A stretch of 64,000 nt of DNA. Origin: Methylocystis sp. SC2. GTDB taxonomy: Bacteria > Pseudomonadota > Alphaproteobacteria > Rhizobiales > Beijerinckiaceae. The stretch lies in NCBI RefSeq assembly GCF_000304315.1, contig NC_018485.1, positions 1,396,501 to 1,460,500 on the forward strand, in the 5' to 3' direction. The translations under genes and the position numbers were made by a program. Of this stretch, positions 58,705-61,733 are shown one piece after another. Under the pieces are notes generated by a model. It was not told the DNA's origin and searched no databases. It saw only the letters and a list, made by a program, of their open reading frames with translations. Numbering within the stretch: the stretch's first letter is position 1; each line of letters starts with the position of its first letter.

Positions 58705-59118
58705 TTAGGAGAGAAGCGACGGGGGTGCGCGAGAGAGCCTGTTTCTGGGCCACTGGGTGGTCGGCGGCGCGAGATCGCGCTCTTCCGGCCAAAGAGGAGG
58801 AGCCTCAGACAAGGGCGCCAGCACCAGAACGACGGCGGCCAGGAGAACCTTTGCGCCGAGGTCGTCGCTTCGGTCACTGAGAAAGCACGCCATGCAGTGC
58901 ATGTGCTGAACGTGCGGATCCTTGCCGTCGCCATTGGCTTGGTCGGCGCAAAGCTCATTCGCCATCGCGACGGGAGAGCTTAGGAACGCGCTGAAATCGC
59001 CACCGTGGCGCCCGTGAGCGAAAATAAGACCCAAAGCTTGTTGAAACAGCAGACAAGCGACGGCGGCCGCCACAATCGGACGCATGAATCGCCGCATTTG
59101 TTGCTTGTCTTGCCGCAT
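58705..59118 (-). CDS. DUF2946-like exported Cys protein (mbn locus, left)
   Basis: About 137 aa. N-terminal membrane helix (MRPIVAAAVACLLFQQALGLIFAHG), then VAMANELCADQANGDGKDPHVQHMHCMACFLSD with a His/Met/CxxC cluster, then a second hydrophobic stretch (VLLAAVVLVLAPLSEAPPLW). It sits at the head of the mbnP-mbnH-mbnT-mbnE arm. The start is uncertain among Met 59118, 59097 and 59085. Function unknown; copper handling is suggested by motif and place. Confidence 0.65.
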   Translation of the reverse strand: MRQDKQQMRRFMRPIVAAAVACLLFQQALGLIFAHGRHGGDFSAFLSSPVAMANELCADQANGDGKDPHVQHMHCMACFLSDRSDDLGAKVLLAAVVLVLAPLSEAPPLWPEERDLAPPTTQWPRNRLSRAPPSLLS

Positions 59119-59516
59119 ATGGAATTCTGAGTGCACAAGGATTAACTTGTCAACGAGAGTCATCGCCCAATTTTTGCAATATTTCGAACTGTTGCGCTGC
59201 AGCCACACTTGGTCTTTGCAATTGCGCTTTGTCTCTTAAATGACGGGCGCGAAGCGGCCATGCGCTCCGACATCGCCCCCAATGGCGGCGCGACCGACGG
59301 CGCAGCCGCGCTCGCACCGATCTTTTGTCCGTAATGAAGATCCTGCGGCGGCTCGACGCAGTGAAGCAGGCTTGCGGATGCTTGCCGTTTGTCAACGCGT
59401 CTTATCAGACCCTGATCGTTCCGCCATGCGCGCGTCGCATAAGGAGTTTCCGTATTGCCGCGCGCGAGTTTCGCGCCTATGATCCGCGCACCGTAGGCAA
59501 TGGTTGGCGGCAATCC
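59119..59516. promoter_or_regulatory. Divergent intergenic region of the methanobactin locus
   Basis: A 398-base region with no convincing gene, between the DUF2946-like genes of the two arms. It should hold promoters for both arms, possibly recognised by the sigma factor at 59989. I found no box I could defend; AT-rich runs such as TTTTTGCAATATTTCG occur near 59171-59186. Confidence 0.4.
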
Positions 59517-59852
59517 ATGCTCGTTCGGCTCATTCTTTTCATCGCGATATTGCTGCAAGCCGCCGGCGTTTCGACTGTCGCCGCGCGCGCTCAATCTCAC
59601 TCTCCGTCGTTTCGCGCCGTCGTCTGCCAAAGCGACGCGAGTCCCGCGGCGCCTCACGCGCCAGGCGACGCCGACGGCTCTTGCTCGGACTGCATCGCGT
59701 GCTGCAACGCTCAGCCGCAGATGCTCTGCGTCTATGATCAGGTCGCGCGCCTGGCCCTTCCAGCGGCGCGAATCAGCGTTCTCGCTCTCCCAATCCTTCC
59801 CATCTCCCGAACGCGATCGGCGACCCCGCCGGCGCGCGCCTCCCCCGTCTAA
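59517..59852 (+). CDS. DUF2946-like exported Cys protein (mbn locus, right)
   Basis: 111 aa. Signal peptide (MLVRLILFIAILLQAAGVSTVAARAQ), then DADGSCSDCIACCNAQPQMLCVYDQVARLALP, a CxxC-x-x-CC cluster with Met and His nearby, then a Ala/Pro-rich end. Mirror partner of 58705-59118 and counterpart of the gene at 11287. It precedes the sigma factor by 136 bases. Role unknown. Confidence 0.65.
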   Translation: MLVRLILFIAILLQAAGVSTVAARAQSHSPSFRAVVCQSDASPAAPHAPGDADGSCSDCIACCNAQPQMLCVYDQVARLALPAARISVLALPILPISRTRSATPPARASPV

Positions 59853-59988: not shown

Positions 59989-60828
59989 ATGCAGAAATCC
60001 CATGAGACGATCGACCGACTGTTTAGAAGCCATCATCGCGATCTGATAACGCGGGCGCGACGCGTAATCGGCTCGGGAGACGCGGAAGACCTTGTCCAGG
60101 AAGCCTATCTCAAAATGCTGGAAAGCGACCGTGGCGAACTGATTTCAAATGCGCGCGGCTATGCGTCGAAGATGACGTGCACGCTCGCGATCGACAATCT
60201 ACGAAGACAAAGAACGCACGCTCGAGCTCTTGCCGAAGACGGCGCATGGTTCCAGTCGCCCGCCCGAGACGCGCAAATCACCTCGGCCCTCGACGCATTC
60301 GGCCTGGCGCGGGACGTTCAAGCAGCCCTGGCGCGGCTGCCGCGATGCTGTCGTCAGATATTCCTGATGAGCCGGATTCTGGGCTTCAGCCATTCGGAGA
60401 TCGCGCAGGAGCTCGGCGTGTCCTTGAGGACGGTCAATCGCAGCCTGGGTCGAGCGCTCGAGCACTTCGATCGCGCTTTCGATATTCCGCGGCCGAGCGA
60501 CCGGGTGGGCGCGCCGGCTCTCGAGGCGGCGGCTTCGCCGCGCGGGTTCTTGGCGGCGCCATCGGACGCGCCGGCGGCGGCCCGGGATGGGAGCGACATA
60601 AGAATCCCCTCGGCCCGAAAAAAATCTCGTCGCACGCTGTCCGATTTTTGCGGCCTTGCTCGTCATACCATTCGGGTCCCGCGTTCTGCGGAACCCGTCT
60701 GGACTTTCCAGACGAACTCAAAAGGGGAGGCCCCTATGACCATCCGTATCGCCAAGCGCATTACTCTTAACGTTATTGGCCGCGCCGGCGCCATGTGCGC
60801 GTCGACCTGCGCCGCCACGAACGGCTAA
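59989..60828 (+). CDS. mbnI: ECF sigma factor (MbnI-like); frame runs on through mbnA without a stop
   Basis: A sigma-70-like factor: region 2 in LFRSHHRDLITRARRVIGSGDAEDLVQEAYLKML and region 4 in LPRCCRQIFLMSRILGFSHSEIAQELGVSLRTVNRSLGRALEHF. The sigma fold should end near residue 165 (base about 60485). The frame has no stop until 60828, so about 85 further codons, then MbnA, are read in the same frame. ATG at 59989 follows GGGGAGG. In Methylosinus, MbnI activates mbn genes with the FecR-type MbnR; no mbnR is visible here. Confidence 0.85.
   Translation: MQKSHETIDRLFRSHHRDLITRARRVIGSGDAEDLVQEAYLKMLESDRGELISNARGYASKMTCTLAIDNLRRQRTHARALAEDGAWFQSPARDAQITSALDAFGLARDVQAALARLPRCCRQIFLMSRILGFSHSEIAQELGVSLRTVNRSLGRALEHFDRAFDIPRPSDRVGAPALEAAASPRGFLAAPSDAPAAARDGSDIRIPSARKKSRRTLSDFCGLARHTIRVPRSAEPVWTFQTNSKGEAPMTIRIAKRITLNVIGRAGAMCASTCAATNG
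60673..60713 (+). promoter_or_regulatory. Two adjoining hairpins just upstream of mbnA
   Basis: First hairpin 60673-60697 (CGGGT..CCGC, GCGG..ACCCG, one mismatch), then 60697-60713 (GTCTGG loop ACTTT CCAGAC, perfect 6 bp). They end 10 bases before the mbnA ribosome-binding site (60724-60730). They could form in the mbnA leader RNA or be an operator; either is inference. Confidence 0.5.
60736..60828 (+). CDS. mbnA: Methanobactin precursor peptide MbnA
   Basis: 30 aa RiPP precursor. The leader begins MTIRIAKRITLNVIGRAGA and the core is MCASTCAATNG. The two Cys (core positions 2 and 6, each in a CxxT-like setting) are the residues modified to oxazolone/thioamide-type groups that bind copper. 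The sequence closely resembles my memory of the Methylocystis SB2 precursor, whose core begins with Arg; here the first core residue is Met. AGGGGAGG ends 5 bases before the ATG. It lies in the same frame as the upstream sigma gene. Confidence 0.95.
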   Translation: MTIRIAKRITLNVIGRAGAMCASTCAATNG

Positions 60829-60839
60829 GGACGGTCAGT

Positions 60840-60870
60840 TTGCGCCGTCGGCCCCCGGCCCGCGGCGCAA
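60840..60870 (+). promoter_or_regulatory. Hairpin between mbnA and mbnB
   Basis: Eight-bp perfect outer stem (TTGCGCCG at 60840-60847 with CGGCGCAA at 60863-60870) and a second inner 4-bp stem (GGCC/GGCC). No T run follows. Such a structure can protect or attenuate the message so that the tiny mbnA is made in excess over mbnB. Confidence 0.6.
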
Positions 60871-60905
60871 GCGACGTCGGTCGCGCAAGACGAGGGCGAC
60901 AATAA

Positions 60906-61733
60906 ATGCGGCTTGGCTTCAATTTCACGCTCGGCGACACCTATGACATGGTTCAGAGGCTGCTCGCGGAAGGGCATATCGACTACTGCGAATTTCTGAT
61001 CGACAATTTTTTCTGCGTCGATCCGGAGGAACTGTCCAAGGCGTTCGATTGTCCGATCGGCTTGCATATTATGTATTCAAAATTTCTGGAAGCCGATCGG
61101 CCGACGCTCGTCGATTTTGCGGCGCGGCTTCGAGACTACATCGATGTGCTGAATCCGATGTACGTCTCCGACCACATTCTGCGCTTCACTCATGAAGGGC
61201 GCGCTTTTTTTCACTTAGGCGAAATCGACTATTCCACCGAATATGAATCCGTCCGCGACAGGGTCGTCGCCTGGCAGGAAATCGTCGGACAGCGCATCCA
61301 TTTTGAAAATTATCCCTCCATCATGGACGGGGGGAGAGAGGCGCCCGCCTTTTTCGAGCGCCTGATGAAAGAAACAGGCGCCGGCGTGCTGTTCGACGCA
61401 TCCAACGCCGTCTGCTCCCATCGCAATTGCGGGACGCCGTTCGAAGACTGGCGCAACGTCATCGCCGAGGCCAAGCATTTCCATGTCGCGGGCTACAGGC
61501 ATTCCCTGGTCGAGCCTTTCATCTCGCTGGACACGCACGCAGAGGCTCTGGCGCCGGACACGCTCGCCTTCTTAAGAGATTTCCGATCGGTCTTCGACAA
61601 GCCCGGCGCAACCATGACCTATGAGCGCGACGACCGGATCGAATTTGACGATGTCGTCGCCGATCTGAAGTTGTTGCGAGAGCTGTTCGGCCAACCGGAA
61701 GAAAGGCGTCATGATCTTGCTCTCTCTGCCTAG
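60906..61733 (+). CDS. mbnB: MbnB, DUF692-family iron enzyme for methanobactin core modification
   Basis: 275 aa. DUF692 TIM-barrel-like protein, the catalytic subunit of the MbnBC oxygenase that converts core Cys to oxazolone and thioamide using multinuclear iron. Visible segments: MRLGFNFTLGDTYDMVQRLLAEGHIDYCEF, YVSDHILRFTHEGRAFFHLGEIDYS, RIHFENYPSIMDGG, LFDASNAVCSHRNCG and HFHVAGYRHSLVEPFISLDTHAE with His/Asp/Glu metal ligands. It overlaps mbnC by 23 bases. Confidence 0.95.
   Translation: MRLGFNFTLGDTYDMVQRLLAEGHIDYCEFLIDNFFCVDPEELSKAFDCPIGLHIMYSKFLEADRPTLVDFAARLRDYIDVLNPMYVSDHILRFTHEGRAFFHLGEIDYSTEYESVRDRVVAWQEIVGQRIHFENYPSIMDGGREAPAFFERLMKETGAGVLFDASNAVCSHRNCGTPFEDWRNVIAEAKHFHVAGYRHSLVEPFISLDTHAEALAPDTLAFLRDFRSVFDKPGATMTYERDDRIEFDDVVADLKLLRELFGQPEERRHDLALSA

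What the first reader, a model, noticed from the sequence alone, without database searches (positions are those of the whole stretch)
59989..60828. Sigma factor and methanobactin precursor lie in one uninterrupted frame
From the sigma factor ATG (59989) to the mbnA stop (60828) there is no in-frame stop. About 85 codons of linker join the sigma domain to MbnA. Either the sigma gene lost its stop and its tail is junk, or some ribosomes make a sigma-MbnA fusion, or translation reaching the mbnA site couples dose of regulator to product. The mbnA ribosome-binding site is good, so free MbnA should still be made.
Basis: seen in the sequence. Interest (0 to 1): 0.75.

Follow-up and report, generated by a model that had tools for sequence, protein, structure and literature searches.

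The report
Sigma factor fused to methanobactin precursor
In Methylocystis methane-eating bacteria a gene switch (sigma factor) and the copper-grabbing peptide it probably controls are written as one unbroken protein; the join was already reported, but its conserved frame suggests evolution keeps it, and it may let the switch sense copper directly.

Summary
Window 59989-60828 is one open frame: ECF sigma domain (aa 1-162), 87-codon linker, MbnA (aa 250-279). The join is already known: NCBIfam models it (NF040705, 519.7 bits, cut-off 350), and Kenney & Rosenzweig 2013 reported it for two Methylocystis strains, leaving its meaning open. It is no one-genome accident: 16 of 20 assessable Methylocystis mbn loci and 46 of 50 close protein relatives are fused. 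Linker residues evolve almost neutrally (dN/dS 0.71; sigma 0.16), yet all 6 distinct linker gaps are multiples of three, against 1 of 9 and 5 of 23 in flanking DNA, so the sigma-to-MbnA phase is probably selected. The linker also seems to hold mbnA's own start: a promoter-like element (GTCYGATT-N14-CGTC) that the M. iwaonis clade reads in another frame, a covarying hairpin and a Shine-Dalgarno site. Best reading: free MbnA from the internal start, plus a sigma with a disordered MbnA tail. Whether that tail senses copper (compare CorE, OrbS) is untested but testable.

The parts
59989..60474 (+). ECF sigma factor domain (MbnI-like), aa 1-162; region 2 at aa 11-75, region 4 at aa 108-159
   Evidence: Pfam and NCBIfam; dN/dS 0.16 over 14 loci; AlphaFold2 ten-residue blocks at pLDDT 51-88
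60475..60603 (+). variable linker, aa 163-205: nearly neutral amino acids, length changes in multiples of three
   Evidence: dN/dS 0.71 over 14 loci; 6 of 6 gap intervals multiples of three
60604..60735 (+). conserved linker, aa 206-249: both dS and dN low, so probably constrained as DNA/RNA
   Evidence: dS 0.216, dN 0.125 over 14 loci
60617..60624 (+). A-run (GAAAAAAA) upstream of the promoter-like boxes
   Evidence: an A-run stands here in both fused clades
60639..60669 (+). promoter-like element GTCCGATT-N14-CGTC, extended to CGTCATACC; proposed ECF -35/-10 of mbnA (inference)
   Evidence: ungapped 31-mer in 17 of 17 fused loci; same two boxes and spacing in the unfused L035; exact match once in the genome
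60674..60696 (+). leader hairpin 1 (predicted)
   Evidence: fold of the window leader and of relatives; covariation not counted
60697..60713 (+). leader hairpin 2, GTCTGGA-CTT-TCCAGAC
   Evidence: 69 of 70 pair cells pair in 10 distinct forms; 5 of 7 pairs change on both sides, two of them only through L035; arms placed by hand
60724..60730 (+). Shine-Dalgarno site of mbnA, GGGGAGG
   Evidence: sequence; GGA invariant in 15 leaders
60736..60828 (+). mbnA: 30-aa methanobactin precursor, C-terminal end of the fused frame; ends MCASTCAATNG
   Evidence: TIGR04071 and PF25751; dN/dS 0.26 over 14 loci
60906..61733 (+). mbnB
   Evidence: TIGR04159, 448.9 bits
61711..62292 (+). mbnC
   Evidence: TIGR04160, 292.2 bits
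62289..63590 (+). mbnM MATE exporter
   Evidence: NF045578, 525.8 bits
57456..58643 (-). mbnP
   Evidence: TIGR04052, 264 bits
56281..57459 (-). mbnH
   Evidence: TIGR04039, 480.3 bits
53835..56249 (-). TonB-dependent receptor, candidate MbnT; plug and barrel only, no signalling domain reported
   Evidence: Pfam

Best explanation
This is the sigma-MbnA fusion gene of the Methylocystis methanobactin operon (NF040705). Two products are most likely. Free MbnA, probably the bulk, starts from mbnA's own promoter, leader and ribosome-binding site, all of which lie inside the linker (inferred from conservation, not shown by RNA data). A second product is the ECF sigma factor carrying a long disordered tail that ends in MbnA (inferred from the open, phase-conserved frame). 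The linker's amino acids hardly matter; what is conserved is the phase from sigma to MbnA and the nested DNA/RNA signals. The fused tail is most plausibly a regulatory extension, in a sigma for which no FecR-type anti-sigma was found; that last step is a hypothesis.
For: 16 of 20 assessable mbn loci in the genus are fused, plus one plasmid locus. 46 of 50 close protein relatives are fused. Linker gaps 6 of 6 multiples of three against 1 of 9 (Fisher p 0.0014) and 5 of 23 (p 0.001) in flanking DNA. At least 22 linker-length changes among 43 fused proteins, against few frame-broken relatives. The shared element lies in another reading phase in the M. iwaonis clade although both ends are in phase. 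Conserved ribosome-binding site. Covarying hairpin 2. No FecR-type anti-sigma (DUF4880) over the cut-off in 16 of 16 main-clade mbn genomes (some incomplete, candidates capped in many).
Against: No RNA or protein data. Linker dN/dS near 0.7, and AlphaFold2 leaves the tail without confident structure or docking. Four of 50 relatives are unfused, so the join is not indispensable unless those are assembly errors. Only 6 gap intervals support the phase test, and pairwise alignments split several of them into pieces that are not multiples of three. The phase could be kept for reasons other than the fusion protein. The promoter is assigned by conservation alone, and no second copy of it was found in the genome.
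Confidence: 0.55

Rival explanations
1. The sigma gene lost its stop once in an ancestor and the tail is harmless; GC-rich DNA simply stayed open, and the frame is not selected.
For: In this genome two other frames are open across the linker; Markov copies of the variable linker stay open in 42-83% of trials over 15 loci; variable linker dN/dS 0.71; 4 of 50 relatives are unfused.
Against: Linker gaps 6 of 6 multiples of three against 1 of 9 and 5 of 23 in flanking DNA; fusion kept in two clades that share only about 40% protein identity; the element between the ends lies in another phase in M. iwaonis while both ends agree.
Confidence: 0.15
2. The phase is kept for translational reasons, not for a fusion protein: ribosomes in the fused frame run cleanly through mbnA, keep the nested leader translated or shielded from termination, and avoid out-of-frame runs across the mbnA start.
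For: Linker amino acids are almost unconstrained. The frame-shifted relatives P0042 and P0043 both end in residues that fit a TGA overlapping the mbnA ATG, and none of the four unfused close relatives appears to run out of frame into mbnA.
Against: If coupling were wanted, the frame that stops on the mbnA start would be expected to be common; it is 2 of 50. Translation through the leader would disturb the covarying hairpin (inference).
Confidence: 0.22
3. The fusion itself is a methanobactin precursor: MbnBC modify the MbnA end of the sigma protein and a protease releases it, so the sigma is a giant leader.
For: MbnA is intact at the C-terminus of the frame with its leader; the 2013 paper raises cleavage as an open question.
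Against: mbnA keeps a conserved ribosome-binding site of its own in the 15 aligned leaders; a regulator made in peptide-product amounts would be costly (inference). Cleavage motifs were not sought.
Confidence: 0.08

Closest known systems
NCBIfam NF040705 sigma_mbnA, 'methanobactin precursor domain-containing sigma factor'; also reported by Kenney & Rosenzweig 2013 (PMC3621798) for Methylocystis SC2 and M. rosea SV97
   Same: Same architecture over the full model (aa 7-279, 519.7 bits, cut-off 350); the paper says the precursor sequences 'appear to be merged' with an ECF sigma factor (section 5 read).
   Different: Nothing in architecture. The nested promoter-like element, the covarying hairpin and the phase conservation are not mentioned in the passages and section read.
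CorE-type ECF sigma factors (Myxococcus xanthus; PMC3107203, passages read; review PMC8999054, passages read)
   Same: ECF sigma with a C-terminal Cys-containing extension after region 4 and no linked anti-sigma.
   Different: CorE has 38 extra residues with six Cys; here 117 residues with three Cys, two of them in MbnA. Metal response untested here.
OrbS, on-board iron sensor of the ornibactin operon (PMC9023288, abstract and section 22 read)
   Same: Sigma for a metallophore operon, without an anti-sigma, with Cys in its C-terminal end.
   Different: OrbS has a short Cys cluster at and after the end of region 4.2; here the first Cys of the tail is more than 50 residues away and the end is the product's own precursor.
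MbnI of Group I (Methylosinus) operons, FecIRA-like
   Same: ECF sigma beside an mbn operon.
   Different: Group I has a FecR-like MbnR and an MbnT with a signalling domain (PMC3621798 passages); neither was found at this locus.

Membership tests
NF040705 sigma_mbnA | score over the curated cut-off across the full model | tested here: met
   519.7 bits against 350, profile 1-272 of 272
Group II methanobactin operon | MbnA with CASTC core followed by mbnB, mbnC, mbnM | tested here: met
   group description from PMC3621798
Group I MbnIRT (FecIRA-like) system | FecR-like anti-sigma beside the sigma | tested here: not met
   the genome's single FecR match over the cut-off is about 0.96 Mb away, in a 454-aa Gly/His-rich frame with an apparent signal peptide, judged by eye; DUF4880 match only below the cut-off
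Group I MbnIRT (FecIRA-like) system | TonB-dependent receptor with N-terminal signalling domain | tested here: not met
   Pfam reports plug and barrel only
CorE-type metal-sensing ECF sigma | no linked anti-sigma | tested here: met
   for the FecR type only; other anti-sigma types not sought
CorE-type metal-sensing ECF sigma | short Cys-rich C-terminal domain (six Cys in 38 residues in CorE) | tested here: not met
   three Cys in 117 residues (sequence)
CorE-type metal-sensing ECF sigma | activity responds to metal through the extension | not testable with these tools
   needs in vitro transcription or a reporter
OrbS-type on-board sensor | Cys cluster directly after region 4.2 | tested here: not met
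   no Cys in aa 163-205 (sequence)

The most novel reading that the evidence does not exclude
The fused sigma is a copper sensor that uses its own product as the sensing part: MbnA at the end of the tail, unmodified or modified by MbnBC, binds copper and changes sigma activity, so that the peptide precursor doubles as an on-board anti-sigma. This would supply the missing copper input of the Group II operons, which have no MbnR. The evidence does not exclude it.
Probability: 0.25. Interest if true: 0.88.

Novelty: already known. Interest (0 to 1): 0.5.

Why it matters
How methanotrophs with Group II methanobactin sense copper is left open in the 2013 paper: it notes that receptors outside the Methylosinus operons lack the signalling extension and are not next to FecIR homologues, and that the role of the sigma merger is unclear. 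The analysis turns that oddity into a testable claim: the frame appears to be kept by selection although the linker's residues are not, and mbnA seems to have its own start inside the linker. If the tail proves to sense copper, a RiPP precursor would serve as the sensor domain of its own regulator; I recall no other example, but did not search for one.

Tried and rejected
Indel or misread in this genome: rejected, because 16 of 20 assessable genus loci are fused. Protein function of the linker itself: little support, dN/dS 0.71 in the variable part over 14 loci (the three M. iwaonis loci have too few changes to judge) and no confident structure (43 sequences, mean pLDDT 59.0). Known RNA family in the leader: 0 matches in Rfam at E up to 1 over 60400-60960. 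Folding energy as evidence for the leader: weak and mixed (window z -2.27; the pieces of L023 and L033, which began within the leader, z -1.78 and -0.67); a 7/7 hairpin arises in 5-15% of shuffled leaders, so only the covariation counts; and the predicted folds of the L021, L023 and L026 leaders pair hairpin 2's arm elsewhere. Other copies of the promoter-like element: the matrix found one site in the window and one in each of 10 of the 11 loci scanned, at mbnA, and none in the eleventh, L035, whose boxes were found by a looser pattern; in the whole genome one exact match, and 20 sites with up to 3 mismatches against 21 for the reversed control pattern. So no regulon was found and no sign that the sigma drives its own gene. 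A first leader alignment used wrong coordinates for the loci and was replaced. Pairwise gap counts in sister pairs gave 3 of 7 linker gaps as multiples of three because the aligner split events (20+4, 27+17+4), and more distant pairs also gave odd pieces (8, 1, 1; 2, 1; 44, 1, 15); net lengths are multiples of three and the multiple alignment gave 6 of 6. A normal sigma end right after region 4: supported by L053, L054, L061 and P0052 (5-9 residues past the region 4 match) but not by P0111, an unfused M. iwaonis relative with 76 more residues. Family-wide search beyond the genus (Methylosinus) could not be run.

Full report
WHAT IS THERE. The frame 59989-60828 is open and encodes 279 residues. 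NCBIfam matches aa 7-279 with NF040705, 'methanobactin precursor domain-containing sigma factor' (519.7 bits, cut-off 350), and Pfam finds sigma region 2 (aa 11-75), region 4 (aa 108-159) and methanobactin (aa 250-276). mbnB, mbnC and mbnM follow on the same strand; mbnP, mbnH and a TonB receptor lie upstream on the other strand.

KNOWN ALREADY. Kenney & Rosenzweig 2013 (PMC3621798; passages, section 5 read) state that the MbnA sequences of Methylocystis SC2 and M. rosea SV97 'appear to be merged' with an ECF sigma factor and that cleavage and sigma activity are unclear. RefSeq gives the NF040705 product name on two M. iwaonis plasmids. Text searches (one search listed 20 of 245 papers) showed no other paper on the join in the titles and abstracts listed, and passages of PMC9601215 and PMC12452194 do not mention it; the library holds open-access papers only.

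HOW COMMON. MbnB at 55% identity or more was found in 21 of 39 genomes of the genus; six of the 39 had no match and 12 only weak ones. One locus was taken from each of the 21; a second copy in G008 was not fetched. One locus (L024) is cut by its contig end. Of the other 20, 16 are fused, one (L030) has a broken sigma domain followed by an open linker, and three (L035, L036, L037) have a free-standing mbnA. One further fused locus came from a plasmid (L047), giving 17 distinct fused loci; L048 duplicates L033. Among 109 protein relatives with E up to 0.001, 50 are close (P0002-P0051, E below 1e-40, the window's own included): 46 carry the methanobactin domain and four do not. P0042 and P0043 leave the frame inside the linker and end in residues that fit a TGA overlapping the mbnA start; P0044 is the H62 sigma, as in L030; P0045 ends in the linker on a short contig.

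IS THE FRAME KEPT? In this genome alone openness proves nothing. Across the 14 main-clade loci dN/dS is 0.16 in the sigma domain, 0.71 in the variable linker, 0.58 in the conserved linker (with low dS as well) and 0.26 in MbnA. So the linker is not kept for its residues. Yet in an alignment made without regard to codons all 6 distinct linker gap intervals are multiples of three, against 1 of 9 in the mbnA-mbnB spacer and 5 of 23 upstream of the sigma gene (L020 left out of the last, cut contig; Fisher p 0.0014 and 0.001). Intervals are not strictly independent events. A cruder pairwise count over six sister pairs gave 3 of 7, because the aligner split events; net lengths remained multiples of three. 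Among 43 of the 46 fused proteins (three N-terminally truncated ones dropped) at least 22 length changes are needed on a sigma tree; with three frame-broken relatives counted as failures, 22 of 25 against one third gives p 2e-8. That last test is lenient: fused proteins are in frame by construction, and P0045 was not counted as a fourth failure.

WHAT ELSE THE LINKER HOLDS. All 17 fused loci share an ungapped 31-base element GTCCGATT-N14-CGTC.TACC; the unfused L035 has GTCTGATT-N14-CGTC. In M. iwaonis loci the element lies two positions off the main clade's reading phase, although the sigma end and the MbnA end agree in phase. A protein-level reason does not explain that; a DNA-level one can. 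I read it as the -35/-10 of mbnA for an ECF sigma (inference; motif type recalled). It occurs exactly once in the genome. Downstream, hairpin 2 forms in 10 distinct sequences with 69 of 70 pair cells paired and 5 of 7 pairs changed on both sides, two of them only through L035 (arms placed by hand, which favours pairing). Rfam has no match.

THE NORMAL END OF THE SIGMA. ECF sigma frames of unfused Methylocystis genomes end 5-9 residues after the Pfam region 4 match (L053, L054, L061); in L052 and L053 a FecR-type protein lies beside them. By that measure the window's sigma would end near aa 164-168. One unfused M. iwaonis relative (P0111) runs on for 76 residues, so the rule is not strict. The 16 main-clade genomes with mbn have no DUF4880 (FecR anti-sigma) match over the cut-off; both M. 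iwaonis-clade genomes and two of the three unfused mbn genomes do. Some of the 16 are incomplete, candidates were capped in many, and 17 of 18 genus genomes without a close MbnB lack it too, so this shows only that no FecR partner was found, not that the tail replaces it.

MECHANISM. Shown: the open frame, its conservation, the nested conserved elements. Inferred: an internal promoter, free MbnA as main product, a translated fusion. Hypothesis: the MbnA tail regulates the sigma, by analogy with CorE (passages read; review passages) and OrbS (abstract and section 22). The tail does not meet the Cys criterion of either; the linker Cys is missing in P0037 and P0041, and P0041 also lacks the second core Cys. 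AlphaFold2 models the sigma domain and gives nearly all of residues 167-279 a pLDDT below 50, which neither supports nor excludes the idea.

VERDICT.

Noticed in passing
60697-60713 and leaders of L018-L035: Covarying hairpin in the mbnA leader, also in the unfused L035; no Rfam match. It could be a new leader RNA motif.
   Followed up: partly
59325-59849: Open frame just upstream of the sigma gene with a Cys-rich stretch (GSCSDCIACC); a similar frame stands at the same place in L007. No family match.
   Followed up: no
58705-59208: DUF2946 protein (Pfam, just over its cut-off) at the head of the divergent strand; frames that look alike by eye stand near sigma genes in L052, L053, L056, L057 and L061 (not tested against Pfam).
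   Followed up: no
L030 (duplicate of L010, Methylocystis sp. H62, over the stretch compared): The sigma domain is broken in region 4, while the linker and mbnA remain open; real loss or sequencing error unknown.
   Followed up: partly
L048 3028-4212: RefSeq names this gene of M. iwaonis SS37A-Re as MbnM exporter, while the gene of the same size and place in strain SD4 (L047 3044-4228) is named MbnH; probably a naming slip.
   Followed up: no
L035: A free-standing mbnA with the same promoter-like boxes but an outer-membrane-protein-like frame (by eye), not a sigma gene, directly upstream.
   Followed up: partly
L049 565-1929: The only FecR match over the cut-off in the genome lies in a Gly/His-rich frame with an apparent signal peptide (by eye), not a typical anti-sigma.
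   Followed up: partly
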